DNA of 64,000 nt from CBDFMG01 sp965221205 [NCBI: bacterium] (lineage in GTDB: Bacteria > SM23-31). The notes below the pieces were generated by a model. The model was not told the origin of the DNA, searched no databases, and saw only the letters and a program-made list of their open reading frames with translations. This document shows positions 45,979-63,951 of the stretch, piece by piece; the stretch's first letter is position 1, and each line of letters opens with the position of its first letter. The position numbers and the translations under genes were made by a program. The stretch covers positions 2,108,001 to 2,172,000 of the forward strand of contig OZ244870.1 in assembly GCA_965221205.1 (NCBI GenBank). The letters run 5' to 3'.

Positions 45979-46012
45979 TTTCAATCTTCCTAATATACTC
46001 AAATATCACATT

Positions 46013-46241: not shown

Positions 46242-46357
46242 CTACAACCATGCATTAAAGCTCTCGGACAAAGGGAGCATGATAACCCTTTAAAACATTG
46301 TTCACGGAAAAATCAACTGTTCTACATAACAATGTTATTACAAGGTTGATACGTTAA

Positions 46358-46469: not shown

Positions 46470-46475
46470 TAATTC

Positions 46476-46504
46476 AATATAGCGTTATTATTTATAGAAT
46501 GCAA
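46476..46504 (-). promoter_or_regulatory. Promoter of tracrRNA copy B
   Basis: On the minus strand TTGCAT (46499-46504), 17 bp, TATATT (46476-46481). Predicted start near 46469, just before the anti-repeat. Confidence 0.65.
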
Positions 46505-46534
46505 GAAAAAAACAACGACACAGGGAGATTAACC

Positions 46535-46771
46535 ATGGCGACTATTCTCGGTCTCGATCTCGGGTCAAACTCGATAGGTTGGGCTTTTGTCGATACAACG
46601 GACAGTAAAATTACCGTCGCAGGGGTGAGGGTGTTCGATTCGAGGCGGGCGTTGACAATCCGGAAGAAGCTCAAGAGAAATCAAAGAATGCAGCCCGAAG
46701 AGCGGCTCGTCTTACACGGCGGGGTTATAAACGAAAACTGATGAAACGCTCCCGCCTCATAACCCTGCTGC
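46535..46771 (+). pseudogene. cas9 5' fragment B (start to bridge helix)
   Basis: It begins with the same ATG context and MATILGLDLGSNSIGWAFVD as intact cas9 and is preceded by its own tracrRNA copy. A five-base tandem duplication (TTCGATTCGA) shifts the frame after GVRVF, so the bridge helix is out of frame. Similarity ends at AACCCTGCTGC, within a few bases of the break in fragment A. No separate protein function is likely. Confidence 0.88.
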
Positions 46772-47897: not shown

Positions 47898-47965
47898 ATA
47901 AATCTCCTTATATAAAAGATAAGCAGTAGCCGACAAATATTGTATGAATTGCAAAATCCCAAGAG

Positions 47966-47994
47966 AATATAAGTACGTCGTCCTGATTTGTCAA
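47966..47994 (-). promoter_or_regulatory. Strong promoter in the repeated arm (copy C)
   Basis: Minus strand: TTGACA (47989-47994), 17 bp, TATATT (47966-47971). It reads away from cas9 into the barrel gene. Its homologue at 44784-44789 precedes the HEPN-like gene. Confidence 0.75.
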
Positions 47995-48021
47995 GAAGTT
48001 ATTACAGGATTGATGCTTTAA

Positions 48022-48129
48022 ATAAAAAACCCCGACTAATGCCGGGGTATAAAGCGTAAGCTTTTCGCGCTCATTACTATTGAGTAAAGAGCACTTATTA
48101 TGATAAGCTTTCAAGAATCATTTGTATCT
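48022..48129 (-). ncRNA. tracrRNA (copy C, next to intact cas9)
   Basis: Same layout as copy B: anti-repeat ATTCTTGAAAGC, bulge, ATAATAAG, hairpin GCTCTTTAC/GTAATGAGC, hairpin AGCTTACGCT, and terminator CCCCGGC..GTCGGGG with T6. Pairing of 12 bases plus ATAA with the crRNA repeat (GTTATGGTTTGC, TTTCAAGAAT) identifies it. Divergent from cas9, as in several type II-C loci. Confidence 0.9.
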
Positions 48130-48157
48130 TAACTAAAAATAGTGCATTTTTTATAAA
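48129..48157 (+). promoter_or_regulatory. Candidate cas9 promoter
   Basis: TTAACT (48129-48134), 17 bp, TATAAA (48152-48157), 38 bp before the cas9 ATG. It overlaps the divergent tracrRNA promoter, so the two may compete. Confidence 0.45.
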
Positions 48158-48163: not shown

Positions 48164-48194
48164 GAAAAAAAACAACGACACAGGAGAATGAACC

Positions 48195-51185: not shown

Positions 51186-52065
51186 ACGAACAGTTGTATT
51201 CAGTAATCCGACATATCTCCATACGAAGCAGAACCAGCTTGTCATATCGGGAGCTGAGCAGAACGATAAGACGATACCGATTGAAGATATCGGGATTGTT
51301 CTCTGTGATCATGACCAGATTCGCATCACGAAAACCCTGCTGGCGAAACTGTTGGAAAACAATGCGGCAGTCGTTATTACCGACGGCAAACATCTGCCGG
51401 CAGGACTTTTTCTGCCACTCGACACGAATATACTGCAGCAGGAGCGATTTACCGGGCAGGCAGGCGCGCCGGTCCCATTGCGGAAACGACTCTGGAAACA
51501 GACGGTCCTGGCGAAAATCAGGAACCAGGCATTGATTCTTAAAAAATTCGGCATGGAAAATGCTCCCTTGTCCGCACTGTTACACAAAGTACGTTCCGGA
51601 GACCCGGGAAACATTGAGGCGGTTGCAGCACAGCGGTACTGGAAGCTTTTGTTTTCCGGGCGGAAATTCAGGAGGAGGCGCTGCGGCGGTCCCCCGAACA
51701 ACTTGCTCAATTACGGATATGCCGTTTTACGGGCACTGCTGGCGCGGAGCCTTATTGGAGGAGGCCTTCTTCCGCTTATCGGAATACACCACAGGAACCG
51801 GTATAACGCCTTTCCGCTTGCGGACGATATCATGGAGCCCTACAGACCTTTTGTTGACAGTATCGTATATGAATTGTCGACACACCAGGCAGTAGAAGAC
51901 CTTACCCCGGAATCGAAAAAGGCGTTGCTGGGGATTCCGGCGGTGACCGTGACCATGGGCGGCGAGCAGTCGCCGCTCATGGTCGCCGCCTCAAGAACTG
52001 CTTCAAGCCTGCAAAAATGTTTTCACAATCGATCATCATCACTACTTGAATTTCCACAACCATGA
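51178..52065 (+). CDS. cas1: Cas1 spacer integrase
   Basis: 295 residues. Metal ligands can be placed as E147 (NIEAVAAQRYW), H204/H205 (GIHHRNRYNAFPLADD) and E220 (IMEPYRPFVD), the usual type II Cas1 pattern. Cas1 with Cas2 inserts new spacers at the array. It overlaps cas9 by 8 bases and cas2 by 4 (ATGA). It looks intact. Confidence 0.95.
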   Translation: MVKRTVVFSNPTYLHTKQNQLVISGAEQNDKTIPIEDIGIVLCDHDQIRITKTLLAKLLENNAAVVITDGKHLPAGLFLPLDTNILQQERFTGQAGAPVPLRKRLWKQTVLAKIRNQALILKKFGMENAPLSALLHKVRSGDPGNIEAVAAQRYWKLLFSGRKFRRRRCGGPPNNLLNYGYAVLRALLARSLIGGGLLPLIGIHHRNRYNAFPLADDIMEPYRPFVDSIVYELSTHQAVEDLTPESKKALLGIPAVTVTMGGEQSPLMVAASRTASSLQKCFHNRSSSLLEFPQP

Positions 52066-52391
52066 ACTTGAATGCGTATAGAATTATGTGGCTCTTTGTA
52101 TTTTTCGATCTGCCGGTAAAAACAAAACGGGAAAAGAAGGCGCACGTGCGTTTCGTGATAAATCTCAAAAAAGACGGTTTCACGATGATGCAGTACTCTG
52201 TTTATATCCGCCACTGTCCGAGCCGCGAAAATGCCGAGGTCCACTGTAAACGGGTTCAATCGTTCCTGCCGGCAAAGGGGTCGGTCGTTATCCTGAGAGT
52301 GACCGACAAACAGTTCGGGCTGATGGAATCGTATATCAGCAAAAAGAAAAATCCTCTCCCGGAGGTGTCGTATCAGCTTGAATTTTTCTAA
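52062..52391 (+). CDS. cas2: Cas2
   Basis: 109 residues with the ferredoxin-like fold. The conserved aspartate region is FVFFDLPVKTKRE, followed by FVINLKKDGFTMMQYSVYIR and a C-terminal strand YQLEFF. It completes the adaptation complex. No csn2 or cas4 follows, which fits II-C. The array begins 100 bp downstream. Confidence 0.95.
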   Translation: MNLNAYRIMWLFVFFDLPVKTKREKKAHVRFVINLKKDGFTMMQYSVYIRHCPSRENAEVHCKRVQSFLPAKGSVVILRVTDKQFGLMESYISKKKNPLPEVSYQLEFF

Positions 52392-52490: not shown

Positions 52491-52922
52491 AATATACAAA
52501 ACTTATTCTTGAAAGCAAACCATAACTGGAGTGGTGATGGGGGGTATCCTGGTTTTAATATACAAAACTTATTCTTGAAAGCAAACCATAACTGGAAGGG
52601 TTGTGGGAAAGTTTGATTCCATAATATACAAAACTTATTCTTGAAAGCAAACCATAACAGTCCTTTTCAATCTTGTCAAGCTTGCCCAAATATACAAAAC
52701 TTATTCTTGAAAGCAAACCATAACTAACCCCTTTTATTTATCCCCATCTATATAAATATACAAAACTTATTCTTGAAAGCAAACCATAACCACCGATGTC
52801 TAATGCGGCCGCAGAGAGAGAATATACAAAACTTATTCTTGAAAGCAAACCATAACCCATTGCCATTGTTTTATCTCCTTATTTATAATATACAAAACTT
52901 ATTCTTGAAAGCAAACCATAAC
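52491..52922 (-). CRISPR. CRISPR array: seven identical 36-bp repeats, six 30-bp spacers
   Basis: The repeat on the plus strand is AATATACAAAACTTATTC then TTGAAAGCAAACCATAAC (36 bp). Repeat starts: 52491, 52557, 52623, 52689, 52755, 52821, 52887; all spacers are exactly 30 bp. In crRNA sense (minus strand) the repeat starts GTTATGG and pairs with the tracrRNA. Each repeat holds TTGCTT, 16 bp, TATATT at its end in crRNA sense, a possible internal promoter as known from other II-C arrays. No spacer matches elsewhere in the window by eye. After the seventh repeat, kb-long inserts begin. Confidence 0.98.
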
Positions 52923-52948
52923 CGGAGAGATGTTCCTCCGTGCGGCCT
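52923..52948. repeat. 25-bp flank shared by three repeat-bounded inserts, copy 1
   Basis: CGGAGAGATGTTCCTCCGTG and CGGCC directly follow the seventh repeat. The same flank follows the repeats at 59012 and 60537. CGGAG/CTCCG can form a hairpin, so it may be the end of a gene terminator. Confidence 0.8.
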
Positions 52949-53246
52949 CCTGGGGGCATCCTCGTGCCCGGAGATAGCATCCCGGCTCGCTGGCTCGGCG
53001 AACGTGGGCAACCCCTGGGCGCGGCGGCGCTCGGCGAGCGGGTCGCCGCCCGTCGGGGTCGGAGAGCGGCGCGGCTCTGTCAGGAACAAACGCACGTTCT
53101 GGCCGAACAGTTCAGCAGCATGGAACATGGTGCGTTCCGTGTTCCGTATCTGTCAGAGAAAATACTCGAAGCCGCATTCCATAGACGGGCCGTGAAGACC
53201 GTCGCCTATCTGCGGGTCTCGCCCGGGGCGTGACCGAGGTTGGTCT
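52949..53246. other. GC-rich insert start, broken coding pieces
   Basis: No intact gene. A plus-strand frame ends in VKTVAYLRVSPG, like the first strand of a serine recombinase (TVAYLRVS), but nothing of the catalytic domain follows. The preceding part may be a helical DNA-binding fragment. Confidence 0.35.
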
Positions 53247-54179
53247 TTACTGCCGCGTCAACGTGGCCGACAGCTCGATGGGTCCGCAGACGCTGGTTGT
53301 GGCGGTTGTGCGGAATACCACCATGTTGCCAGTAAAGGTAAGCGTTATGATCGCCTCCATGATCGTACCGCAATCCGGGTCTTCTTCGTCCGGCGCGGTG
53401 AGCGTGACGCGGCCGGCCGCATCTATGGTGCCGCTGATGGTTCCGAGATCAGTGGTCTCGCCTACTACTTCGTAGCTGCCCGTGATCGCGAGTTGTGCCC
53501 CGTCCTGCGCCACGGTCATTGACATGGTTCCGCTCGAACTCACCATTGACCCTTCAATCAAGGCTGAGAGCGTCAGTGGTCCACGATAGGTGCCGGCGAC
53601 ATTCGGAATCACCGGTTGCGGCGGCATCGGCGTAGGACTCGGCGGACTTGTGTTGTCACCTTGCCGCGTCAACGTGGATGACATTTCGGCGTTGTTTCCG
53701 CAGTCGTCGCTTTGGGCTAAGTTGAATACCGCTATGTTGCCAGTAAAGGTAAGCGTTGCAACCGTGTTCGTACTGCAAACCTGGTCCGGGTCTTCTTCTT
53801 GGAAAGTGTCGGCCGGGAACGTGACACGACCATCCGTATCGATGGTGGCGTTGATGATTCCGAGATCGCTAGTGTCACTTAATACAGTCGAGCCCGTGAT
53901 CGTGAGTTGTGCCCCGGCCTGCGCCACGGTCATTGACATAGTTCCGCTCGAACTCACCATTGACCCTTCAATCAAGGCTGAGAGCGTCAGTGGTCCACGA
54001 TAGGTGCCGGCGACATTCGGAATCACCGGTTGCGGCGGCATCGGCGTAGGACTCGGCGGCGGCATCGGCGTAGGACTCGGCGGCGGCATCGGTGTAGGAC
54101 TCGTTGGACTTGTGTTGTCACCGCCGCACGCTGACAACCCGAGAACGATGATCGAGACAAGAGTAAGGTGTGCGCGCAT
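53247..54179 (-). CDS. Lipoprotein with two tandem beta-domain repeats and a PMPPPSPT linker
   Basis: 310 residues. The signal with lipobox LSACGG is followed by a proline linker made of 24-bp DNA repeats (54034-54115), then two copies of a domain of about 120 residues: VIPNVAGTYRGPLTLSALIE, GTMSMTVAQ.GAQL and a closing ELSATLTRQ. The two copies are nearly identical in their first halves, so the duplication is recent. Function unknown. It is read in the crRNA direction, downstream of the repeat at 55248 and three small frames. The start at 54179 follows AGGAGGAGC. Confidence 0.75.
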   Translation of the reverse strand: MRAHLTLVSIIVLGLSACGGDNTSPTSPTPMPPPSPTPMPPPSPTPMPPQPVIPNVAGTYRGPLTLSALIEGSMVSSSGTMSMTVAQAGAQLTITGSTVLSDTSDLGIINATIDTDGRVTFPADTFQEEDPDQVCSTNTVATLTFTGNIAVFNLAQSDDCGNNAEMSSTLTRQGDNTSPPSPTPMPPQPVIPNVAGTYRGPLTLSALIEGSMVSSSGTMSMTVAQDGAQLAITGSYEVVGETTDLGTISGTIDAAGRVTLTAPDEEDPDCGTIMEAIITLTFTGNMVVFRTTATTSVCGPIELSATLTRQ

Positions 54180-54239
54180 CTGCTCCTCCTTAATGTATTA
54201 ATATATGGGATTAATATACCTACTGACAGATTGAAAAGA

Positions 54240-54680
54240 CTATTTTTTCAAATCTTCTTTAGTAAATAAATAAACAACAATTGAATTCGGATCATTATTA
54301 TCTATAAGACTCATATCTAAATCTTCTAAAGTAACATGTAGCTCTTCTGGGCTAAGCTGATAAGCAGACCCATTTGCATTATCTATGACCATACCTATTA
54401 TCCCCCAAGAAAAAATATTTCCTCAAATGGCTGCTCTCTTTTTAAATTCTCTAGTGATATTGAGTGTCACGTCTTCATAGTTTTCCTTTTTAATAACAAC
54501 AATATATTCACGTGTTTTCTTCAAAGTAACTGTAGTTGGCGTGCTCCCCATATCTTCATTATTTATAAGCACCCTCGCCCCAGCAGGCATTGAATTGAAA
54601 CTAATACCTTGTGTAGTTCCTCTCGAAATAGTTGCACAGGAAAATGATGCCACACAAAACAACGCAATAAAAACCCAGTC
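54240..54680 (-). pseudogene. PEGA-domain lipoprotein with an in-frame TGA
   Basis: A signal-like ALFCVASFSCATIS with a lipobox is followed by a PEGA domain (ISFNSMPAGARVLINNEDMG, then TPTTVTLKKTREYIVVI). After REFKKRAAI comes TGA, and the same frame then continues with GNIFSWGIIGMVIDNANGSA, the normal end of this lipoprotein type, to a stop at 54240-54242. One nonsense change therefore splits it. There is no good start codon: the frame opens after a stop near 54690. Composition is AT-rich, unlike its neighbours. Confidence 0.65.
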
Positions 54681-54751
54681 AATCTTTTAAAAATAAAAGT
54701 GCAGTCGTGGTCACCTTCAAAAACCCGATATTTGATGCCTAACAGAGTATT

Positions 54752-54883
54752 TTAGAGCACTTCAGAAGTTTTAACGGGGGGGGGGGGGGGGGGTGCAAGG
54801 AATAGCCCCTCTTTATCTATCACTTCCTGGAACGTCTCAGCAAGCTTGATAACACTTCCATTTAACTTTTTATTATCATCCAT
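54752..54883 (-). CDS. 43-residue frame containing an 18-base C-tract
   Basis: The ATG at 54881-54883 follows AAGGGGTGTAG. The product starts MDDNKKLNGSVIKLAETF, then after LFLA has six prolines from the homopolymer and ends VKTSEVL. The tract may slip, but all three frames end soon after it. No family match. Confidence 0.35.
   Translation of the reverse strand: MDDNKKLNGSVIKLAETFQEVIDKEGLFLAPPPPPPVKTSEVL
54776..54793. repeat. Homopolymer of 18 G
   Basis: Eighteen consecutive G on the plus strand within the small frame at 54752-54883. Length is uncertain in any sequencing technology. Confidence 0.8.
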
Positions 54884-55013
54884 TCTACACCCCTTCTCTT
54901 TGAGTTAAATTATACTACTAGGAACGGACAAAAAAATACAAAATACCATGACATATTAACAATTTGCCACTAACTATAGTATAAGGAATTTTTAAAAAAG
55001 CAACATAAAAAAT

Positions 55014-55148
55014 TTATCGCAGAGGAGTGGGCTTTTTAAATTCTTTTTCTTTTACAACCGGTTTCGTCAAGTTCTTGGGATTAACCCTGATGATCCTGTT
55101 TAAAGCTTCAAGAAACCCCATACCCTCAGGAAATATTCGTTTAGACAT
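55014..55148 (-). CDS. 44-residue hypothetical protein
   Basis: The ATG at 55148 is preceded by GAAAGGATG. It reads MSKRIFPEGMGFLEALNRII and ends with a lysine-rich tail (KPTPLR). Basic, soluble, no family recognised. It begins about 100 bp downstream of the repeat at 55248 in crRNA sense. Confidence 0.4.
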   Translation of the reverse strand: MSKRIFPEGMGFLEALNRIIRVNPKNLTKPVVKEKEFKKPTPLR

Positions 55149-55247
55149 AAATGAACATCCTTTCAAAAAAACAATTTAATAAGAGCGAATCCCAAACCAA
55201 GCAAACTAAGAAAACCCCCTATTACAGAACATATAACTTTAGGGATT

Positions 55248-55324
55248 AATATACAAACTCATTCTTGAAAGCAAACCATAACAATACAGTTTGAAACGTT
55301 ATGAACTGTTTTAATATACAAACT
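55248..55324 (-). CRISPR. Isolated repeat-spacer-repeat unit (second repeat truncated)
   Basis: A 35-bp repeat variant (55248-55282; TACAAACTCATTC) is followed by a 30-bp spacer (55283-55312), then the first 12 bases of the next repeat (55313-55324). That repeat breaks at AACTCA and continues into an inverted barrel-gene fragment. Exact spacer length shows that it belongs to the same array as 52491-52922. Confidence 0.85.
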
Positions 55325-55400
55325 CAAAGGTTGAGGTGAACGGATCGACGCCGTCCGCCTGGACCGGAATGTGGCTTCGAACAAGGTTGAAGGTTGCTTC
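55325..55400 (-). pseudogene. Barrel-protein C-terminal fragment joined to a broken repeat
   Basis: The bases match 59127-59204 (plus strand AGGTTGAGGTGAACGGATCG), the end region of the barrel gene family, then jump over about 31 bp to CTTCGCGCCGAC. It begins at the word CTCA shared by the repeat and the gene. Confidence 0.75.
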
Positions 55401-55843
55401 CTTCGCGCCGACATGGCGCACGGCAAACTCGTGTTCCGAAAGGTCGGGCCTGGCGAGAGCTTGTGCGAGATCGAACTCTGGGTCGGAGGCGACAGGTATC
55501 AAGAAGATCACGATGACGCTGGCCCACTCCACGTCGCCTTCACGGGCCGCCTAATTGCTGTGAAAGCGATGACCTCGCCATCGCAATACCTGCAATCCGT
55601 GTCTACCAAACGAGAACGGGGAAGCTAGTCGTGTACCGCGACTGGCGCGGTGGCACTCTGGAGGATGCGGGCGCTACCTACCGAGAGTTTCCAGACTTGA
55701 AGACCTTGGTGGCAAGTCCGAGCGCACTGGATACGCTCTGGATCAATGGTAGTGGAAACGGTGAACGGCCTGACCTAGATCGACAGTTCCTGCACCACAC
55801 CGCCGCAGCGCTTAGAGAAAAACTGGTTATTCGAATCGACTGA
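55401..55843 (+). pseudogene. Frameshifted small protein, possibly EXLDI-like
   Basis: Two frames join to one protein: KLVFRKVGPGESLCEIELWV, HVAFTGRLIAVKAMT, then after a shift near 55590 AIRVYQTRTGKLVVYRDW, YREFPDLKTLVAS and the end AALREKLVIRID. The order FTGRL, VY.T..GK, and a terminal E.L..I segment resembles EXLDI proteins, but I am not sure. It is plus strand, against the crRNA direction. Confidence 0.4.
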
Positions 55844-55867
55844 CTCTCGGCGACAAAGGGGACTCAG

Positions 55868-56113
55868 ATGCTTACGCTTGGCCAGGCTGGGCTGCAAAAA
55901 CTCGCCAATCATCTTCTTCGACACGACCGCTGTGGCCGCAAGCGACGGCACGCATCCCAAGGAAAGGCAGAAGCCGCCATACGCGCGCTCATTCGCCGAG
56001 AACTGGACCGGCCCAGCGAAGGGTTGCTGGCGGCATATCACTGTCCCCGCTGTCTTTCATGGCATGTAGGACATCGTTCACGCCACACGACCACAGTCGC
56101 TCTGGCATCGTGA
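55868..56113 (+). CDS. Small zinc-ribbon-like protein
   Basis: 81 residues from an ATG at 55868 with AAAGGGGA before it. The C-terminal YHCPRCLSWHVGH carries a CxxC-x-x-x-H pattern typical of small zinc-ribbon proteins common on plasmids and phages. The N-terminal part is basic and helical. Function unknown. Confidence 0.5.
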   Translation: MLTLGQAGLQKLANHLLRHDRCGRKRRHASQGKAEAAIRALIRRELDRPSEGLLAAYHCPRCLSWHVGHRSRHTTTVALAS

Positions 56114-56168
56114 ACGCGACCGAGTGAGAGACGAGACGAGCGTCGTCCTCGTAAAAGGACGCTAGAGC

Positions 56169-56336
56169 ATGACGGACGACACAAGTACTACTTGGTTTCT
56201 GCTTGTTTTCGGTATCGGTGGGCTTACGTTTGTCGTCGTTAACGTGATGGAGAACGGCATGACTGAAGGCATGGCGTATCCCATTCTTTTCTCTGTTCTC
56301 GGTTCTCGCGCTCATAGCCGGAATTCAAGACCTTAG
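56169..56336 (+). CDS. 55-residue membrane protein
   Basis: ATG at 56169; hydrophobic WFLLVFGIGGLTFVVVNV and a second weaker segment AYPILFSVLGS. No family recognised. It lies 55 bp after the zinc-ribbon frame in the same direction. Confidence 0.4.
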   Translation: MTDDTSTTWFLLVFGIGGLTFVVVNVMENGMTEGMAYPILFSVLGSRAHSRNSRP

Positions 56337-56482
56337 ACAGTAAATAGCTGGCTACGTCGGCTGGCACTCGGAACGAGCGCGACCAGGACCGGGCACTATT
56401 CGACCTGCCGCCAGCCGGCGGTCCCACCCCAAAGACGCCTGCCGCCCGTTCTGTGGCGTCTTGGAGCGGGTCAGGGCCGTCC

Positions 56483-57073
56483 TCACGAGCCGGGGGGGCC
56501 CGTTTGGGGTGGGGGGTGGGAGCTGCTTAGCTTCGGCTCAGCGAACAGCTTCAGCGCCTCTCGCTCCGCATCGGTTAGCGTCAGTTGTGCGCCGGCCGCC
56601 GCCTCCGGATAGACCATCGCCGCCTTCCATTCGTGTTGCCCCATGGAGGTGGCGACGCCAAGTCTGACGCCACGTTTGCGTAACCGCTCCACCAGCGCTG
56701 GCGCATCGAACAAGAACACCTCCGTGATCACCAACGGCCGGGTCTGGCCCCGCGAGGTCATCGCCCCCGCCTTCGGCCCGGTCATTACAAGGTAGTAGTC
56801 CGGGACGCCGGCTGGATTGATGTCGAGCAGCCCCTCGCGCTTGCCGTACCACTTCACATTCACCGTCTGTCCGGCCAGCGGGCCGTCTGCAAACCGGCCG
56901 TCGAAGCCCTCCTGAACCGCGGATTCTTCCAGCGTCACCCTGAAGATTTCCCGCGCGATCCACTCCCCGACATGACCCCTGATGGCTGGACGGCCGATCA
57001 GAGCCGCAATCTCTTTGTCGATGGTGTTACGCCTCGCCAAGAGGGAGGCTAATTGCTTCAGATGATCGCTCAT
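56483..57073 (-). CDS. PD-(D/E)XK-like protein (DUF6998-like)
   Basis: 196 residues. The N-terminal helix with ALIGRPAIRGHVGEWIAREI has a glutamate, FDGRFADGPLAGQTVNVKWY provides an aspartate and a VK, and PDYYLVMTGPKAG follows. This matches a nuclease-like fold family of unknown target. The tail after residue 180 is low complexity. Minus strand, GC-rich. The start at 57073 has no strong ribosome binding site (AATAGCAACAGCC). Confidence 0.55.
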   Translation of the reverse strand: MSDHLKQLASLLARRNTIDKEIAALIGRPAIRGHVGEWIAREIFRVTLEESAVQEGFDGRFADGPLAGQTVNVKWYGKREGLLDINPAGVPDYYLVMTGPKAGAMTSRGQTRPLVITEVFLFDAPALVERLRKRGVRLGVATSMGQHEWKAAMVYPEAAAGAQLTLTDAEREALKLFAEPKLSSSHPPPQTGPPGS

Positions 57074-57229
57074 GGCTGTTGCTATTCCAGTAACGTTTTT
57101 TTGGAATAATACTGAGGAAAATCCGGAGTACTGGTGCCACTACCCCCGCTAATCCCCTCAATTTCCAGTTGAGTCGGCCTCTTTTTCAGCCGAAAGATTG
57201 TCAAGTACGTACTACTTGATCAGTACTAC

Positions 57230-57628
57230 TTGTACATAGGCATGGTGTTTATTCCAGGAGATCGACCAAAAGGCATGGTGTTTATTCCTGGAAAACTCCC
57301 CAGAATCACAGTTTTTTGTGGAAATCCACGCGTCGTGGCCGCGCTGGTGCTGATTGTCGAGCCGGGGCGCCACCTGCGCATCAATCCCGACCTGGTGGCC
57401 ACGACCCTGGAACTGACGCCGGCGGAGACGCACGTTGCGGTCGGGTTGGCGGAAGGCAAGAGCGTGCGCAACATGGCCGAGGCGACGGGGCATACGACCG
57501 CCGCCATCTACTGGCACCTGCAGCAGATCTACCAGAAGCACTCGATCTCGCGGCAGGCGGACCTGGTGCGGTTGGTGCTGTCGCTCGCGCTCACCGGCGG
57601 GAGCCGGGAGCCCGGCACTGGATGGTGA
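57230..57628 (+). CDS. LuxR-type DNA-binding domain protein, 5' end replaced
   Basis: Residues from about 60 form a classic LuxR C-terminal helix-turn-helix: LELTPAETHVAVGLAEGKSV, then GHTTAAIYWHLQQIYQKHSI and RQADLVRLVLSLAL. The sensor domain is missing. Upstream are two copies of GGCATGGTGTTTATTCC (57240 and 57274), so the 5' end looks rearranged. It may act as a small DNA-binding protein or be a fragment. Confidence 0.55.
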   Translation: MYIGMVFIPGDRPKGMVFIPGKLPRITVFCGNPRVVAALVLIVEPGRHLRINPDLVATTLELTPAETHVAVGLAEGKSVRNMAEATGHTTAAIYWHLQQIYQKHSISRQADLVRLVLSLALTGGSREPGTGW

Positions 57629-58925
57629 CGAGGGGCCGCGCACCGGTCGCTGCGGGACCCGGAGGGAAGGCTCCAGAGCGGCTCAGCAAGGGTCCGTACG
57701 GAGAGCTCTGGAGCGGCCCTAGGCGATAGGCGAGCTGCATGTGATGCACTTCGCGCGGGGAAAAGTCGGACACGTATTCGGGAAGCCAGGACATGAGATC
57801 CCCGCCGTACACGACGTGGAAGAACCCCATGGCGTGAGCCATCTCGTGGCGAAGCACAGGGAGAAGCGGACAGCCCTGACCGTCGGAATTGAACTCGTCC
57901 CGCGACAGCGCCTGACTGTTGATTTTCACCGAGCCCTGTGCCGACCCAATCGTTGCCTCCCCACACAAAGCGGTCCCGAGTTCTTCCGGAGGAAGGAACT
58001 CAATCGTGATCTGGTCGTTGGAACGTTCAGAGCCGTCCGATATCCGTCCGCCAAACGGCTGTCCCGTGATTGTGGTGACGATGCGCGGAATCTCCGCCCG
58101 AATTTGTTGCACCCGTTCCTCGGAAACGACGCGTTCGCCGCCATCGTTGTGTGTGCGGATATGAAAGTCCGGACTGCTTGTCGACAGCACATACGACGAC
58201 CGTCGTTCGAGAGGCTCACCGCACCTGTTGGGAGGACAATCCTGGGTGTTGAAGACGATCATGTTCCAGAACCAGCTGATGAAGTCCGGATCGGCATTGG
58301 GACTTCCGGCCTCGAGCGTGAAGTCACGTTCGACGAGCGAATCATGATCTGCATCCCGGCAGGAGACCGACCGCGTTGGCGGGTTGTCGTACCCCTCTGC
58401 GATCACGTCCAAAAAATAGGAACCAGTAAGCTCTGGAATTGCATACCGTCCGTCCGAACCAGTTATGGTGCGCCGCTGCATCCAGGGGCGGGTGGTGGAG
58501 GCCTGTACGGACGCCCCGGCGACGCCACGGCCAGCCTGATCACGCACGCTGCCGAGAACTGTGCAGGTGGGCTCCGGCTCCAGGTTGGGGCTAAAGTCGA
58601 GATTGCCTATGGATGTCGCCCCGGGGCTCCACCCATGCACACCTGAGTCATAGCCATGGGCGAAGGCTCTCAGGGTGAACGAGGCGCCCCCGTCGGGGCC
58701 GGCCGCGCCGGTAATGCCCGTGATCTCGTACGTGCCGTCGGCTGCCGTCACCGCGCGTCCCACCTCAGAAAACCTTGCCCAGTGGTCTTCGACGATAACA
58801 GTGGCGCCATCGATTCCCGCGCCGCTCGCCGCGTCCTGCACGCGGCCATAGACGCGGAACCCAGCAGGTGCCGGTGTAGGGGTCGGAGCCGTTGGCGTTG
58901 AGGGTCCCCCGTCGCCGCATACTGC
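57591..58925 (-). CDS. Metzincin-type metalloprotease with carboxypeptidase-regulatory domains, 5'-truncated
   Basis: The zinc site HEMAHAMGFFH (HExxHxxGxxH) and a following DLMSW Met-turn mark a metzincin. Before it are two beta-sandwich domains (VQDAASGAGIDGATVIVEDH; VLGSVRDQAGRGVAGASVQA). The reading begins as CGDGGPSTPTAPTPTP, a mature lipoprotein N-terminus, but the signal peptide and start codon are absent. The frame ends at a TGA at 58926-58928, and a CRISPR repeat begins at 58946. The gene therefore seems to have lost its start at the repeat boundary. The C-terminal 40 residues look non-native. Confidence 0.65.
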   Translation of the reverse strand, partial: AVCGDGGPSTPTAPTPTPAPAGFRVYGRVQDAASGAGIDGATVIVEDHWARFSEVGRAVTAADGTYEITGITGAAGPDGGASFTLRAFAHGYDSGVHGWSPGATSIGNLDFSPNLEPEPTCTVLGSVRDQAGRGVAGASVQASTTRPWMQRRTITGSDGRYAIPELTGSYFLDVIAEGYDNPPTRSVSCRDADHDSLVERDFTLEAGSPNADPDFISWFWNMIVFNTQDCPPNRCGEPLERRSSYVLSTSSPDFHIRTHNDGGERVVSEERVQQIRAEIPRIVTTITGQPFGGRISDGSERSNDQITIEFLPPEELGTALCGEATIGSAQGSVKINSQALSRDEFNSDGQGCPLLPVLRHEMAHAMGFFHVVYGGDLMSWLPEYVSDFSPREVHHMQLAYRLGPLQSSPYGPLLSRSGAFPPGPAATGARPLVTIQCRAPGSRR

Positions 58926-58945
58926 TCACGCAGCAGCTCAGTTAT

Positions 58946-59047
58946 AATATACAAAACTCATTCTTGAAAGCAAACCATAACAGTTATTATCATGTTGCCT
59001 CCGTGTTTGGTAATATACAGCACTTATTCTTGAAAGCAAGCCGCAAC
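58946..59047 (-). CRISPR. Isolated repeat-spacer-repeat unit
   Basis: Full repeat 58946-58981 (AAAACTCATTC variant), a 30-bp spacer 58982-59011, and a full-length variant repeat 59012-59047 (TACAGCACTTATTC, AAGCCGCAAC). Both still carry the TATATT box in crRNA sense. Confidence 0.92.
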
Positions 59048-59072
59048 CGGAGAGATGTTCCTCCGTGCGGTC
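59048..59072. repeat. 25-bp flank shared by three inserts, copy 2
   Basis: CGGAGAGATGTTCCTCCGTG follows the repeat directly and ends at the stop codon of the barrel fragment (minus strand). Confidence 0.8.
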
Positions 59073-59484
59073 TCAGAGACGGCATTTGAGGTTGACGGTC
59101 ACCGTGTAGTATGCGAGGCCATCGAACTCAAAGGTTGAGGTGAACGGATCGACGCCGTCCGCCTGGACCGGAATGTGGCTGCGAACAAGGTTGAAGGTTG
59201 CTTCCTTACTGAGGCTGCCGAACGTGGCCCAGCGTGCCTTCGCGCCGACCGAGGCGCGGTCTGTCAAGGCGTAATCGATCCCGGTCATCAACTGGACGCC
59301 GAAGGCGATCCACCTCCGGCTTGCGGACGAACATGTTCCAGTAGTCCAGGTTGGTGCGGGCCCAGCCGATTCCGGCGCCTGCGTATGGCGTCCAGCGCGA
59401 GTCGTTCACGAAGTCGTAGTACGCGTTGGCGAAGAGCTGGTGGGCGTTGTAGCTGCGGATCTCCGAACAGGAATAGTTGTCCAA
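59073..59484 (-). pseudogene. Barrel-protein fragment with internal deletion
   Basis: Two readable parts, HQLFANAYYDFVNDSRWTPY and MTGIDYALTDRASVGAKARW ending TVTVNLKCRL, are in different frames. Compared with 60598-61529 about 120 bp between GCCGAAG and CGAAGGCGATC are missing. The N-terminal half is absent. Only 25 bp separate its stop codon from the repeat at 59012. Confidence 0.75.
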
Positions 59485-60119
59485 TTGGATCGCCTACTAG
59501 GATAAGCGTGTCTCACACGAGTTGTGAAACGGAAAGTTTTTGGGCTATGGGCCATTTTAATTTGGGCAAATGCGTGGTCCCTTGCCGCAGTCGATTGCCT
59601 GCGCGTCTTTCTGAAATAACCGGACGCGCCCGGAGGTTCCAGGCCGGGTGGAGTGGTCATGTTCGACCGCGAATGGTTCATTGCAGACTGTCGCATGGCG
59701 AACGAGTGTGACCTGCCACCACCAACGAGTCCACCCTCTAAGTTAGACCTAGGACCCTTTGAAGTCCACTTCCATGGGATAGAACGCTGAGCCTGCGAGA
59801 CCTCTGGGTAATCTGGCCTCCGGAACCGAAGGCCGATAGGCCAAGGCGCTGTGAGGCCATTGCTGATCACCCCCCCAATGAGAGTCGCACAGGTCGGCAT
59901 TTAGTCTTGCGCAATCGCTTCTTTGTGTAACCCCTTGCCTGCTGACCTTCAATCCAGATAATAGCCAGCGCCAACCAGGATAGGCACCCCAAAGGTGACC
60001 ACCCGCTTGACGAAGGACGCCTTGCGCTGGGGCATCCCGTTGGAGGGGTTAATCGAGGAGTAGCACAGGAAGGTTTCCCCGTCCGATATCGTCGTGGTCT
60101 TCGTGCCATGGGGACGGCG
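59485..60119. other. Insert interior without a clear gene
   Basis: A minus-strand tail (VTFGVPILVGAGYYLD and a stop near 59950) looks like the end of a small membrane protein but has no start. Nothing else is supported. Confidence 0.35.
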
Positions 60120-60515
60120 TTATCGCTTCCGCACAATGACAAGACACCGCATGATAGCCTCCCACCGGTCCACCCCGGTCAGTTCGTAGGCATCTGCAGG
60201 TCTTCGACAATCCATGGCTTTTGCCTGCAGATAGCGGAGCTGGCTCACGCCCGTGAACTGATCGGCTGGATCGGGCCGTGTGTACCAGGTCTCGGAATAC
60301 CAAGCCTGCATTATGCCCTTACACCACGCGCGGTCGGTCTCGGTCATCTTGAGTCCGGTTGCTTCGTCGACTGCCTGGCAGGCTCTCTCCAGTTTCTGAG
60401 GGCTTGCATCGGTGTATATGGGCGCTTTCGGGCTGCAGGACGCTGCCGCAAGCATTGTGGCGATGGCGATGATCAGGCTTGCGCAAGCCTTCGTTTGGGT
60501 TGGGTCGTTTCTCAT
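60120..60515 (-). CDS. Small lipoprotein placed directly behind a CRISPR repeat
   Basis: I chose the ATG at 60513-60515, preceded by GAGAGG. The signal with LAAASCSPKAP suits a lipoprotein. The mature domain (ERACQAVDEATGLKMTETDR, WYTRPDPADQF) is unknown. The repeat 60537-60572 ends 22 bp before the start codon, so its internal TATATT box would place the transcript start a few bases upstream of the ribosome binding site. Confidence 0.6.
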   Translation of the reverse strand: MRNDPTQTKACASLIIAIATMLAAASCSPKAPIYTDASPQKLERACQAVDEATGLKMTETDRAWCKGIMQAWYSETWYTRPDPADQFTGVSQLRYLQAKAMDCRRPADAYELTGVDRWEAIMRCLVIVRKR

Positions 60516-60536
60516 GGGAGCCTCTCGATCAATTTG

Positions 60537-60572
60537 AATATACAAAACTTATTCTTGAAAGCAAGCCACAAC
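60537..60572 (-). CRISPR. Isolated CRISPR repeat
   Basis: 36-bp repeat with AAGCCACAAC at its end. Followed on the right by the 25-bp shared flank and on the left, 22 bp away, by the lipoprotein start. Confidence 0.93.
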
Positions 60573-60597
60573 CGGAGAGATGTGCCTCCGTGCGGCC
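60573..60597. repeat. 25-bp flank shared by three inserts, copy 3
   Basis: CGGAGAGATGTGCCTCCGTG, then CGGCC; lies between the repeat and the stop codon of the barrel pseudogene. Confidence 0.8.
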
Positions 60598-61529
60598 TTA
60601 GAGGCGGCATTTGAGGTTGACGGTCACCGTGTAGTATGCGAGGCTGCCGAGCTCAAGGTTGGAGTCAAACGGGGTAACACCGTCCGCCTGGACCGGGGCG
60701 TGGCTGCGGATGAGGTTCCACGTCGCGTCATGGCTGAGGGTGTCGAACGCTGCCCAGCGTGCCTTCGCGCCGACCGAGGCGCGGTCCGTCAAGGCGTAAT
60801 CGATTCCGGTCATCAACTGGACGCCGAAGACGTTCTGGCGCACCGGCATATCAATGAAGGAGACCGTGCCGGCGGCTGCCTGTTTGGCTTCGTCGGGCCA
60901 GTCGGGGTCGAAGGCGATCTGCAGGTACTCCGCATCCGGCTTGCGGACGAGCATGCTCCAACGAGCATGCTCCAGTAGTCCAGGTTGGTGCGGGCCCAGC
61001 CGATTCCGGCGCCTGCGTATGGCGTCCAGCGCGAGTCGTTCACGAAGTCGTAGTACGCGTTGGCGAAGAGTTGGTGGGCGTTGTAGCTTCGGATCTCCTC
61101 GTACGGTGGTTCCTCGCTGCTCCACTCGGTGTTCTTGCCCTGGAGCGCCACATTGGAGGTCGCACCGAGCGCCGGAGTGTCATTTCCGTGGTACCGGTTG
61201 AGGTATTCCACTTCAAAGCGCGGCTTGCCAGCCATGTATCCGAAGCTGAGGCTGCTCACGAACCCGGCGCCCGTTTCGAACTCGTTGGACGTGAGCTGCT
61301 GCGCGATGTTGTTGACGCAGGCCGGGTCGCTGGTGGGCGGGGAAACCGACGCCGGATAGAGGAGACGGTCGCATCGCGTCGGGTGGTTGACGCCGCTCAG
61401 GCTCGAGGTGACGGTGGATGCGATCGACACCCCTGTCTCGATGCCGACGTAGAAGCCGGACCGATCCTCCTGTGTGCGCCAGCGGTGCCCGCCGCGCCAA
61501 GCAGGCAGAGGCTCACCGCGGCGACGCGG
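60598..61529 (-). pseudogene. Outer-membrane barrel gene, frameshifted and 5'-truncated at a repeat
   Basis: Clear barrel protein of the same family as 46914-47897: DRSGFYVGIETGVSIASTV, FETGAGFVSSLSFGYMAGKP, PYAGAGIGWARTNLDYW, then after a shift TGIDYALTDRASVG and the end TVTVNLKCRL. The shift is due to a direct duplication of ACGAGCATGCTCC around 60947-60974. The signal peptide (AAVSLCLLGAAGTAGA) is in another frame and its start codon is missing, because a partial repeat begins at 61530. Confidence 0.75.
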
Positions 61530-61599
61530 CAGCACTTATTTCTGAAAGCAAACCACAACTTTTTATAGTGTTTTTCATTGTTTTTAAATATACAAAAAC
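61530..61599 (-). CRISPR. Two broken repeats around a 27-bp spacer
   Basis: The right part of a repeat (61530-61559; AGCACTTATT, TCTGAAAGC) has lost its first bases to the barrel gene. It is followed by 27 bp of AT-rich spacer and the first 13 bases of the next repeat (61587-61599), which then joins GC-rich sequence at AAAAAC. Confidence 0.8.
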
Positions 61600-61693
61600 A
61601 AGAGGGAGGCGTCAGCTTCTCGTCCCCCTGCGGACGGTTTTGCTCCGGGTTCCGTTCCGGGGGCCGGCTTATCCACAGGACAGCCCGTTTCTA

Positions 61694-62200
61694 CTACTTC
61701 CGGAACAGAATGTCCGGGCAGCGATTCCTGGGAATTTTCAGGGGATCGCCGAGCCAATACCCCCTTCTCCCCCGTTGGTTCATGTAGACCCGAAACGCTT
61801 TTCTTGGCTCCAGTGCGATGAGCAGCTGATACGGGTCTTCTTCCCGGCTCCGAGCCGTTCTATGTTTTTCCAGCAGATTCGTTAGCTCTTTGTACGTCAG
61901 ACAGCAGATCTCTCGGTCTTCCACGCAGATCAGGGCGAGGTGGAGATCGTTTCCCGCCTCGGCGAGATGCCTCAATTCTTTGACGTGCTGCTGGTTGAAA
62001 GTGAACCGATACTCTCCGAATATACCCTTCCTGGTGCGGGATATCTTGAGATAGACGCCTATGTCGTTGTTTACCTTAAAAGCGCTGCGAGAGACCACCT
62101 CACCCTTCACCTTTAGCGCATTGATCGCTGTAAATCGCGGGTGTTTTGCGATCTGATTGAGAACTGCCCCGTGGTACAGATGTTCATCGCTGATCTTCAT
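61694..62200 (-). CDS. 168-residue protein of unknown function next to a TIR-like fragment
   Basis: It starts MKISDEHLYHGAVLNQIAKH at an ATG at 62200 after GGGAGAATGCG. It is compact, with a helix, mixed strands (SRSAFKVNNDIGVYLKISR, EYRFTFNQQHVKEL) and a basic C-terminus (YWLGDPLKIPRNRC). It appears complete. I cannot name a family. The neighbouring TIR-like start suggests a defence-type pair. Confidence 0.6.
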   Translation of the reverse strand: MKISDEHLYHGAVLNQIAKHPRFTAINALKVKGEVVSRSAFKVNNDIGVYLKISRTRKGIFGEYRFTFNQQHVKELRHLAEAGNDLHLALICVEDREICCLTYKELTNLLEKHRTARSREEDPYQLLIALEPRKAFRVYMNQRGRRGYWLGDPLKIPRNRCPDILFRK

Positions 62201-62234
62201 CGCATTCTCCCGTGAGCGAAATCAATATCGTGCA

Positions 62235-62366
62235 TTAGCAGAGCACCAGGGGTTGCCGCCTTCCCGCACAAGCACCGCGCGATCGTTTGATCTGACCGAC
62301 GAACAGGTACTTGTCCATCAGATTGTTGTCGAAATCGAAACTGATGAACGCTCTTGGGTCGGCCAT
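62235..62366 (-). pseudogene. Truncated TIR-like (DUF1863-type) protein
   Basis: A strong AAGGAGAAG precedes the ATG at 62366. The first 27 residues (ADPRAFISFDFDNNLMDKYL, FVGQIKRS) match the first strand and helix of DUF1863 TIR-like domains, which act in NAD-linked or signalling defence systems. After that the sequence is unrelated and ends at 43 residues. Confidence 0.65.
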
Positions 62367-62539
62367 TGCTTCTTCTCCTTGTCTGGTGCATGTCCTCTCA
62401 TTCTCCCACGTCCTCAAGACGGGAACCACAGGGCCGCGCGCTGAGAAAGACAGAAAACCGAAGCACTCAGACGATTCCGGGTTCTCTCAAAGAGCACGCC
62501 CCCAACAGCCCCTATCATCTCATCAGATTTGATATGTTC

Positions 62540-62575
62540 AATATACAAAACTTATTCTTGAAAGCAAACCACAAC
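62540..62575 (-). CRISPR. Isolated CRISPR repeat
   Basis: 36-bp repeat with the AAACCACAAC variant. No second repeat 30 bp away on either side. It reads toward the TIR-like fragment and the 168-residue gene. Confidence 0.93.
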
Positions 62576-62580
62576 TTCTG

Positions 62581-62766
62581 CTACTCAAAAGCGACACACA
62601 ATACCTTCGAAACATAGTGACAATACAGTCCAGCTTCAGCAACTTTGTTATTATTCTCTTCTGCTATTTCATCCTTGAGAAGTTGTAATTCGGCAGGGAG
62701 TTGATTGGCGATATCTTTGTGCCACCGGGACAGCAGCTTTCGCTTGTGGAATAATCCCCACAACAA
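62581..62766 (-). CDS. Possible 61-residue protein ending at a repeat
   Basis: TTG start at 62766 without a good ribosome binding site; helical, charged (LPAELQLLKDEIAEENNNKV). Its stop is within 6 bp of the repeat at 62540-62575. May be a gene fragment. Confidence 0.3.
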   Translation of the reverse strand: MLWGLFHKRKLLSRWHKDIANQLPAELQLLKDEIAEENNNKVAEAGLYCHYVSKVLCVAFE

Positions 62767-62813
62767 TCATCACGCCTACTAATCAGACATATCAGCTGAG
62801 GCCGAGGTCGCTC

Positions 62814-63794
62814 TCACTCATATGGGAACCTTAGTTTCTTTGGGCGAGGTGAATAGTTCCTAGGAGCTTCACACGCCCGTCTCACATGAAAAAGTATGTT
62901 TTCGTCGAACCAGGTGATTTGATCAAGATCGGCGAACCGATCCCGCAGTCGCCGTTCGAAAATAACCATTGCTTCATCGAATTCCCCGTCTTCGTAGAGC
63001 GAAAACGTTGAATAGTGCCGGTTGTGAGCCTGATCCATTAACTGGTCGAGCTGCGCGCTGCGCTGATAGCGGAAGCACGTGGCAGAGCTGAAGAACAGAG
63101 ACTCGGTTCTTTCGATCGACCGATACACCGTCTCGAGCTCGATCAACCGGGCCTCCTTTTCGACGAATCCCGGGAAATATCGTCCCCAAATAGTACGTGC
63201 GTTTTGCGCTGGCAACCGGGTGTAAACGAACAGATGACCATCCTCCTTGAGGCCATCACACGTCACGCGGAAAAAGTCGTCGAGATCGAAATGATGGACC
63301 GCATTGAACGAAACGACACAATCGAAGGACTGCTCGCCGAGTTCGAGGGTCTCGACCCGCGTTTGTTTCGTCTCGAAGTGATCGATCCCATTGTCGCTCA
63401 GCAACTGCGCAGCTTTTCCCAGCATTGCCTGGTTGGTGTCGATGCAGGTCAAATGCAACCCGGGCAACGCATCAAACAATAGCAAGTCATACCTGCCCGC
63501 CCCGCACCCGATATCCGCCGCGCGAACAGACGAATATCCAGCGAACTCCTGGGCAATGTGATGTATCGGCTCGGGGTCGGTCGTCCGCACCTTGCGATAG
63601 ACGGCGGACACCCTGGTGAAGTGGTCCTGCATTTCGATAATCGACGTCACGGCCGGCCTTGGTTTCATGTACGATGCCGTCTTTGCCCCCTGCAGCAGGA
63701 TCGGACTGTCTGGACCAACGGTCAGCGAGTACTCGTCGCTCGATACGGGGATTCCCACGTCGGTTGTCGTAGGTTTGCGATTCTCTTTCTTCAT
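62814..63794 (-). CDS. SAM methyltransferase fused to a catalase N-terminal fragment
   Basis: The 326-residue frame has a class I methyltransferase core: RAADIGCGAGRYDLLLFDAL (SAM-binding), HLTCIDTNQAML, SFDCVVSFNAVHHFDLDDFF. The first 36 residues (TTDVGIPVSSDEYSLTVGPD, SPILLQ) are instead the conserved beginning of catalases, which normally continue with a haem-binding domain not present here. The ATG at 63794 has AAAGGAGAC. An active methyltransferase is possible; its substrate is unknown. Confidence 0.75.
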   Translation of the reverse strand: MKKENRKPTTTDVGIPVSSDEYSLTVGPDSPILLQGAKTASYMKPRPAVTSIIEMQDHFTRVSAVYRKVRTTDPEPIHHIAQEFAGYSSVRAADIGCGAGRYDLLLFDALPGLHLTCIDTNQAMLGKAAQLLSDNGIDHFETKQTRVETLELGEQSFDCVVSFNAVHHFDLDDFFRVTCDGLKEDGHLFVYTRLPAQNARTIWGRYFPGFVEKEARLIELETVYRSIERTESLFFSSATCFRYQRSAQLDQLMDQAHNRHYSTFSLYEDGEFDEAMVIFERRLRDRFADLDQITWFDENILFHVRRACEAPRNYSPRPKKLRFPYE

Positions 63795-63895
63795 GGTGTG
63801 TCTCCTTTGCGTGTGGGTTGTGGGAGTGGGATCGGCCGCGTCCCCGAGGGTTCTGCGTGCCGATCAGCGCGTTTGGCTTCATCTGGGATTTCCAT
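63791..63895 (-). CDS. 34-residue leader frame coupled to the methyltransferase
   Basis: ATG at 63893-63895 after AGAAGGCAAC, proline-rich product (MEIPDEAKRADRHAEPSGTR), with its TGA overlapping the next ATG as ATGA. It begins about 20 bp downstream of the repeat at 63916 in crRNA sense. Confidence 0.35.
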   Translation of the reverse strand: MEIPDEAKRADRHAEPSGTRPIPLPQPTRKGDTP

Positions 63896-63915
63896 TGTTG
63901 CCTTCTTTGGTTTTT

Positions 63916-63951
63916 AATATACAAAACTCATTCTTGAAAGCAAACCACAAC
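63916..63951 (-). CRISPR. Isolated CRISPR repeat near the window end
   Basis: 36-bp repeat (AAAACTCATTC and AAACCACAAC variants). The 49 bases to the window end hold no further repeat, so the series may continue beyond. Confidence 0.92.

What the first reader, a model, noticed from the sequence alone, without database searches (positions are those of the whole stretch)
52491..63951. CRISPR array whose outer part is a series of repeat-bounded gene cassettes
Seven perfect repeats with 30-bp spacers are followed by at least nine more copies or parts of the same 36-bp repeat over 11 kb (55248, 55313, 58946, 59012, 60537, 61530, 61587, 62540, 63916). Short units keep the exact 30-bp spacing. Between them lie inserts of about 2.3, 3.6, 1.5, 1.0, 0.9 and 1.3 kb holding lipoproteins, barrel fragments, a metzincin, a nuclease-fold protein, a TIR-like start and a methyltransferase, mostly GC-rich against an AT-rich host. 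Genes are cut exactly at repeats (58946, 61530). Cas1 is not known to add kb-size spacers, so recombination between repeats, or another capture route, would be needed. An assembly chimera is the main alternative.
Basis: partly seen in the sequence, partly recalled or inferred. Interest (0 to 1): 0.92.

Follow-up and report, generated by a model that had tools for sequence, protein, structure and literature searches.

The report
CRISPR array broken up by foreign genes
The old end of a bacterial CRISPR array is split by kilobase pieces of mostly foreign-looking, GC-rich genes, probably brought in by recombination at CRISPR sequences, which would make an immune memory bank double as a landing site for genes from other bacteria.

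Summary
A type II-C locus (cas9, cas1, cas2) is followed by seven perfect 36-bp repeats, then nine full or partial, mutated copies over 11 kb, with inserts of 2.3, 3.6, 1.5, 1.0, 0.9 and 1.3 kb between them. Of 12 related arrays, none showed such a series, but in five the far end is cut by the contig end; one (G290) has a single 12.9-kb phage-gene insert exactly between two repeats.

Several inserts look foreign: two barrel proteins and a LuxR-like fragment have relatives in Acidobacteriota with sponge-type names; one barrel was not found in 244 genomes of the host-like phylum. They are mosaics, and not all are separate captures: three repeat/insert junctions are copies of one. Similar inserts lie beside duplicated cas9 5' ends, and a GC-rich block lies elsewhere.

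Best reading: the leader-distal end is a repeated landing site, through homology at CRISPR sequences with illegitimate joins, then duplication and decay. By a curated count 12 of 13 gene remnants point in the crRNA direction (raw ORF list 10 of 15), so repeat-borne promoters may drive some. Cas1 capture is unlikely. Assembly error is unlikely but untested against reads.

The parts
43434..43655 (+). cas9 5'-end fragment 1, ends in CCTGCTGC, followed by GC-rich insert B
   Evidence: 95.0% to 48206-48424 over 220 nt; same breakpoint as fragment 2
43962..44633 (-). insert B gene, weak HEPN match
   Evidence: HEPN E 0.0011, 19.5 bits, below the cut-off of 22
44800..46002 (-). Fic-domain protein, set between two GTTATTAC copies (44793-44800 and 46334-46341)
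   Evidence: Fic E 2.8e-15; sequence
46334..46771 (+). duplicate of tracr region plus cas9 5' end (fragment 2)
   Evidence: 88.3% to 47998-48424 over 437 aligned nt; anti-repeat core at 46447-46458
46917..47954 (-). insert C, outer-membrane barrel protein, GC-rich, open frame of 346 aa
   Evidence: matches 7 of 7 Acidobacteriota genomes that had been chosen because they match the barrel of insert G, best 48% E 4e-69; 0 of 244 host-like genomes
47966..47994 (-). sigma70-like promoter TTGACA-17-TATATT upstream of insert C gene
   Evidence: 22 promoter-like sites found, 13.4 expected in shuffles; similar stretch upstream of insert B gene
48000..48130 (-). tracrRNA candidate: anti-repeat core 48107-48118 and terminator-like site 48029-48048
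   Evidence: extent inferred
48195..51185 (+). cas9, type II-C size, 996 aa
   Evidence: Pfam HNH_4, RuvC_III, Cas9_a; PADLOC Cas9; 47% to L088
51178..52065 (+). cas1
   Evidence: Cas_Cas1 E 4.7e-29
52062..52391 (+). cas2
   Evidence: CRISPR_Cas2 E 2.9e-17
52491..52922 (+). intact array part: 7 perfect repeats, 6 spacers of 30 nt
52923..55247 (.). insert D: about 26 nt of barrel-gene 3' flank, gene fragment, lipoprotein 53247-54179 (-), AT-rich part with PEGA protein 54423-54662 (-)
55248..55326 (+). repeat (35 nt), 30-nt spacer, first 14 nt of a repeat
55327..58945 (.). insert E: 83-nt barrel fragment (from 55321), ORF 56486-57073 (-), LuxR-like 3' fragment 57329-57625 (+), metzincin-like ORF 57594-58925 (-)
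58946..59047 (+). repeat, 30-nt spacer, repeat
59048..60536 (.). insert F: barrel 3' part (-), lipoprotein in ORF 60123-60545 with ATG at 60515 (-)
   Evidence: 59012-59310 is 85.3% to 60537-60835 over 299 nt including the repeat
60537..60572 (+). repeat copy sharing GCAAGCC with 59012
60573..61533 (-). insert G: barrel gene split over two frames, start cut at the repeat remnant
   Evidence: Surface_Ag_2 E 1.1e-4; 46% to L095
61534..61597 (+). repeat remnant (positions 11-36), 27-nt spacer, repeat remnant (positions 1-11)
61598..62539 (-). insert H: ORF 61697-62200 and ORF 62238-62429, neither with a family match
62540..62575 (+). repeat copy, canonical CCACAAC end
62576..63915 (-). insert I: AT-rich 0.2 kb, then methyltransferase 62817-63794
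   Evidence: Methyltransf_12 E 4.9e-15
63916..63951 (+). last repeat copy in the window

Best explanation
This is the leader-distal (old) end of an ordinary type II-C array that has repeatedly received foreign DNA. Incoming molecules most likely crossed in at a short homology to the locus: a repeat, a spacer matching its target, or, at the other edge of the locus, the tracr/cas9 5' end. The other side was often closed by a microhomology or illegitimate join. This leaves foreign genes bracketed by direct copies of host CRISPR DNA. Unequal exchange between repeats then duplicated some repeat-plus-insert units, and mutation, small deletions and further joins decayed them. Shown: the anatomy, the likely foreign origin of some inserts, the duplication of repeat-plus-insert units, ordinary arrays in relatives. 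Inferred: array polarity, the crossover step, its order, the vehicle. Likely consequence, untested: each repeat keeps a -10-like element pointing towards cas2, so captured genes in that direction may be expressed.
For: Nine outer repeat copies, all + strand; of the two edges of each of the six inserts, 9 of 12 abut a full-length (35-36 nt) repeat and 3 a truncated one. The repeat-plus-barrel stretches at 59012 and 60537 form one homologous block, 85.3% over 299 gap-free nt, both repeats sharing GCAAGCC: duplication with the repeat, then divergence. The join at 55313 shares AACTCA between repeat and barrel gene. Similar logic at cas9: insert C lies between a 437-nt duplicate (88.3%) and the intact copy. 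Foreign look: barrel G matches 7 of 20 genomes, none of the 6 Marinisomatota among them; barrel C matches all 7 of those same genomes and 0 of 244 Marinisomatota; a LuxR-like fragment is 84% to two of them and is only the last ~87 of 376 aa. Six of the seven relatives' arrays whose far flank could be seen (at least 1.9 kb) are uninterrupted. The first repeats are identical and the outer ones mutated, as expected of an old end (trailer repeats often carry changes: PMC8047081, passages read); the far end is degenerate in L105 too. Precedent: spacer-target recombination (Varble 2019, not held, cited in PMC8616872, passage read) and proposed integration at repeats through solitary repeat units (same review).
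Against: No donor molecule with a repeat or matching spacer was found for any insert; viral scans with the barrel flank and with two of the six spacers gave 0. The one viral repeat match (L103) is 22-24 nt and may be chance. A GC-rich block also lies at 4.3-9.46 kb without repeats, so a general propensity to take up DNA may suffice. In five of 12 control arrays the far end is lost at a contig end, so the control is small. Not all insert DNA is GC-rich or of shown origin: the metzincin-like ORF matched 0 of 297 Acidobacteriota-phylum genomes. Long reads were not available.
Confidence: 0.5

Rival explanations
1. General insertion tolerance: the old array end and the flank upstream of cas9 are dispensable DNA in a decaying, uptake-prone genome; foreign pieces land anywhere and persist where harmless. 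Repeats merely mark what was there.
For: GC-rich block at 4.3-9.46 kb away from the array, ending at an 85-nt M24-gene fragment; possible insertion-sequence remnants at 2125 and 22578 (label by eye); inserts are mosaics with small deletions.
Against: 9 of 12 insert edges abut a full-length repeat rather than falling anywhere in repeat or spacer; two cas9 fragments break at the same nucleotide. Duplication makes these edges partly non-independent.
Confidence: 0.22
2. Giant spacers by spacer-target recombination: array spacers recombined with their targets on incoming DNA, dragging in the target's surroundings exactly at repeat ends.
For: Junction exactly at a repeat end, in three copies of one event; D shares only 23-26 nt (near spacer size) with F and G after the repeat; G290 has 12,888 bp of one phage-like gene exactly between two repeats.
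Against: The shared length is short of 30 nt; none of the edge 30-mers tested recurs as a spacer in the window or the 1.6 Mb of held loci; in G290 no other spacer clearly matches the insert; the window's inserts look cellular, not phage.
Confidence: 0.12
3. Assembly or amplification chimera in a metagenome.
For: No reads or whole genome held; an 18-G run at 54776; fragments that look like those of another lineage; the join at 55313 lies at a 56-nt exact match with the barrel copy at 59125.
Against: Repeat-plus-insert duplicates differ by 15% and cas9 duplicates by 5-12%. Exact matches within the window that overlap the other eight outer repeat copies are 13-33 nt, and at the two cas9 fragment ends 27 nt, short for an assembler to jump on; matches outside the window could not be tested. 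The repeats carry graded mutations.
Confidence: 0.1
4. Cas1-Cas2 integrated kb-size prespacers.
For: D, F and I lie between two full repeats; cas1 and cas2 are intact open frames with Pfam matches.
Against: New spacers are expected at the leader end, yet the seven repeats there are normal; partial repeats and mosaics do not fit; the cas9 inserts need another route.
Confidence: 0.03

Closest known systems
Type II-C CRISPR-Cas locus (cas9-cas1-cas2-array)
   Same: Gene order, 36-nt repeats, 30-nt spacers, anti-repeat upstream of cas9, repeat ending in a -10-like TAnnnT as in 12 of 12 relatives' repeats
   Different: Outer array split by six kb inserts; cas9 5' end duplicated twice with inserts
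Spacer-target recombination in staphylococci (Varble et al. 2019; recalled, paper not held, seen only as cited in PMC8616872)
   Same: CRISPR sequences act as homology for exchange with foreign DNA
   Different: There phage DNA and transduction; here cellular-type gene fragments lodged in the array
Solitary repeat units in viruses, proposed to integrate at arrays (PMC8616872, passage read)
   Same: Repeat-repeat recombination would leave foreign DNA between two repeats
   Different: Only proposed; no repeat-bearing donor found here
Integron cassette array (recalled)
   Same: Series of genes mostly in one orientation separated by a recurring short sequence that may hold a promoter
   Different: No integrase among the ORFs scanned, no attC core seen, fragments rather than whole cassettes

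Membership tests
Type II-C CRISPR-Cas | cas9, cas1, cas2 only, Cas9 about 1000 aa | tested here: met
   no ORF of 60 aa or more other than overlapping frames lies between cas9 and the array
Type II-C CRISPR-Cas | regular repeat-spacer array with tracr anti-repeat | tested here: met
   7 repeats, 30-nt spacers; anti-repeat core at 48107-48118
Type II-C CRISPR-Cas | promoter in each repeat (reported for some II-C systems) | tested here: inconclusive
   TATATT at the repeat end, TAnnnT in 12 of 12 relatives; PMC7038990 passage reports a repeat promoter for N. meningitidis and a similar motif in C. cellulolyticum; no transcription data
Integron | tyrosine integrase gene | tested here: inconclusive
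   none among the ORFs scanned with Pfam; an rve-type integrase core at 17262-17696 is of another kind; not all ORFs were scanned and the genome is not held
Integron | attC sites with RYYYAAC/GTTRRRY cores (recalled) | tested here: not met
   repeat ends CCATAAC or CCACAAC do not fit the recalled core, by eye only
Insertion-sequence disruption of an array | transposase in the insert | tested here: not met
   no transposase among the insert ORFs scanned; short ORFs were not all scanned and inverted ends were not searched for

The most novel reading that the evidence does not exclude
A CRISPR array that works as a gene-capture platform: repeats serve both as recombination sites and as promoters, so foreign genes accumulate between repeats in the crRNA direction and are expressed, an integron-like by-product of type II-C repeat design.
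Probability: 0.07. Interest if true: 0.9.

Novelty: new variant of a known kind. Interest (0 to 1): 0.6.

Why it matters
If confirmed, CRISPR repeats would be shown to act as entry points for cellular genes from neighbours, not only for 30-nt memories. The trailer end of an array would then be a record of gene transfer between community members. Because II-C repeats can carry promoters, inserted genes could be expressed at once, which is easy to test.

Tried and rejected
A guessed repeat pattern gave 0 matches; the true repeat was then read from the sequence. The genome-contig scan with Cas9 confirmed no relative among 4 stretches; the M24 family was used instead to reach host relatives. The metzincin-like ORF gave 0 of 297 Acidobacteriota-phylum genomes, with no positive control. 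Viral scans for the barrel protein (0 confirmed of 2 stretches), the barrel flank and two of the six spacers were empty. Plasmid and phage searches with Cas9 gave only distant hits (57 records, best 33%; 1 record, 27%). Twelve spacers or spacer-like 30-mers and five 30-mers before repeats were compared with 1.6 Mb (window plus held loci): apart from the three junction copies, the best other match was 16 nt (E 0.005, L045), not convincing. A natural barrel 3' flank to compare with the junction was not found by my script. attC-like sites and insertion-sequence disruption were considered and set aside. A reverse-transcription route (the junction lies at the base of a terminator-like hairpin, 52923-52940) was considered but not tested: no search for a reverse transcriptase was made. 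The Rfam search, structure prediction and fold search were not used.

Literature: ten searches (one search was malformed and not run). Their listings (top 4-20 rows each) showed no report of an array split by a series of kb cellular-gene inserts; the library lacks most subscription papers, and two papers that I wanted were not held. Passages were read in PMC8616872, PMC8047081, PMC7038990, PMC8163846 and PMC9531527 (the last gave nothing used here); no paper was read in full.

Full report
What is there. A 996-aa Cas9, Cas1 and Cas2 precede an array of seven identical 36-nt repeats with 30-nt spacers. Nine further full or partial copies follow on the same strand up to 63951. Six inserts of 2325, 3619, 1489, 961, 942 and 1340 bp lie between them (computed). 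Three short array relics survive: repeat-30-partial repeat at 55248, repeat-30-repeat at 58946, and a remnant-27-remnant at 61534. Of the 12 insert edges, 9 abut a full-length repeat (35-36 nt) and 3 a truncated one.

Array polarity. In L104 and L105, the two nearest relatives by Cas9 score (47% and 45%), the array follows cas2 with the same 66-nt period and repeats that begin GTTGTGG in the crRNA sense. The window's outer copies ending CCACAAC are therefore the canonical form and the inner CCATAAC the derived one. In L105 the end away from cas2 is degenerate. I infer that new spacers enter next to cas2 and that the broken part is the old end.

Controls. I fetched flanks of 18 Cas9 loci: 12 of 297 genomes in the Acidobacteriota-phylum search and 6 of 245 in the Marinisomatota-phylum search. 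An array was found in 12 of 18. In five of the 12 (G016, G155, G085, G202, G524) the side away from cas9 runs to a contig end after 0-1.6 kb, so a broken far end could not have been seen. In the other seven, 1.9-20 kb lies beyond the last copy; six of these show no kb interruption. Across cas9, 11 of the 12 loci have a repeat-like hit 4.3-4.9 kb away, which I take to be the tracr anti-repeat (G234 has one more 373 bp from it; G524 has none). The seventh, G290, has two groups of repeats separated by 12,888 bp that hold one open reading frame of 4283 aa, best matched by a DarB-like phage family (E 0). The insert starts and ends exactly at repeats and is the only copy found in that genome. So a single giant insert exists elsewhere, but I saw no other series.

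Origin of the inserts. The host DNA of the window is mostly 35-47% GC per kb, the cas genes 43-50%, the GC-rich inserts 54-65%. The barrel in insert G matches 7 of 20 genomes, none of the 6 Marinisomatota among them. Barrel C beside cas9 (46917-47954) matches all 7 of these same genomes, which were chosen for that reason (up to 48%), and 0 of 244 genomes of the Marinisomatota search. The two barrels are distant homologues (27-30%). A LuxR-like piece (57329-57589) is 84% identical to G125 and G006, where it is the tail of a 376-aa gene; the label rests on an NCBIfam match (E 1.3e-6) and a sub-threshold Pfam GerE match. That DNA search matched 7 of 15 genomes, mostly through this piece. 'Sponge-type' rests on record titles (SB0667, SB0670, SB0675, RHO1, COS1, CO36388) and on sponge species named in PMC8163846 (passages read); the link of titles to sponges is my inference. 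No origin was found for the lipoproteins, the metzincin-like ORF (0 of 297) or the other ORFs, most of which were not searched for.

Host. Cas9 is nearest to Marinisomatota (47%; 40% at best in the Acidobacteriota search). A SusC-like receptor is 42% to a Neomarinimicrobiota genome over its length, and 43% to two partial copies in a Verrucomicrobia-titled one. A di-haem oxidoreductase matches 4 of 244 Marinisomatota at 41-47%. The M24 proteins are nearest to Aminicenantes and an Acidobacteria-titled genome (56-58%). The placement is tentative.

How the inserts relate. The sequence CGGAGAGATGT[T/G]CCTCCGTGCGG follows a repeat directly at 52923, 59048 and 60573. From the repeats at 59012 and 60537 the two copies run on as one alignable block (85.3% over 299 nt), and a later part is 97.1% alike over 138 nt: duplication followed by divergence and conversion or deletion. 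Insert E begins with 83 nt of the same barrel gene at 98.8%, joined to the repeat through AACTCA. The number of independent captures is therefore below six.

Beyond the array. The cas9 5' end occurs three times (fragments in 43434-43655 and 46334-46771, intact from 48195). Both fragments break after CCTGCT and run into different GC-rich inserts. The genes of inserts B and C share an upstream promoter-like stretch (TTGACA-17-TATATT at 47994). A duplicate-insert-original order is what a single crossover of a circle carrying that host piece would leave; tandem duplication with deletion would also do. Another GC-rich block (about 4.3-9.46 kb) ends at an 85-nt fragment of an M24 gene (94.1% to 13673-13757). 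The tendency is thus not confined to repeats.

Direction. I count 13 gene remnants between 52923 and 63915: 12 on the - strand, the crRNA direction, and 1 (LuxR-like) on +; sign test 0.0017, not independent because two are duplicates. This count is curated. The raw list of ORFs with a third-position GC signature has 10 - and 5 +. I dropped four + ORFs that run through repeats or lie antisense to a called gene, and added two - genes recognised by a signal peptide (53247-54179, by eye) or a Pfam match (54423-54662). Repeats of all 12 relatives end in TAAATT, TAAACT or TACACT in the crRNA sense, here TATATT. PMC7038990 (passages read) states that N. meningitidis II-C repeats start transcription and that C. 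cellulolyticum repeats carry an extended -10-like end. In insert F the repeat's TATATT lies 21 nt before an ATG with GAGAGG between. Expression is inferred, not shown.

Judgement. Recombination at short CRISPR-locus homologies with illegitimate closure explains most features, but no donor was found. Capture of kb DNA by Cas1 does not fit the normal leader end or the cas9 inserts. A chimera does not fit duplicates diverged by 5-15%, nor the short exact matches at most junctions (13-33 nt at eight of nine outer copies, 56 nt at 55313), but only reads can close that question.

Noticed in passing
L121+L122 (G290 contig 2, 414747-427634): 12,888 bp of one phage-like gene (DarB-like family, 4283-aa open frame) sits exactly between two perfect repeats of a 49-copy type II array, like a giant spacer.
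   Followed up: partly
L103:11-34: A 105-kb viral contig (IMGVR_UViG_3300033141_003544) carries 24 nt identical to the crRNA-sense start of the canonical repeat, just upstream of an ORF: possibly a solitary repeat unit (RNA anti-CRISPR), possibly chance.
   Followed up: partly
54776-54793: Run of 18 G in an AT-rich stretch, inside the 3' end of a short reverse-strand ORF; phase-variable tract or assembly artefact.
   Followed up: no
9583-13764 and 32957-43280: Eight paralogues of an M24-type peptidase with signal-like starts (38-57% identical to one copy); nearest relatives found in Aminicenantes and Acidobacteria-titled genomes.
   Followed up: partly
4300-9457: GC-rich block with a CARDB-repeat protein and a 521-aa ORF without Pfam match; a piece of the CARDB gene recurs at 8875-8993.
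   Followed up: no
2125-2457 and 22578-22976: 76% alike stretches that look, by eye, like decayed insertion-sequence remnants.
   Followed up: no
52923-52940: The duplicated barrel-gene junction lies at the base of a terminator-like hairpin whose tail is the repeat itself.
   Followed up: partly
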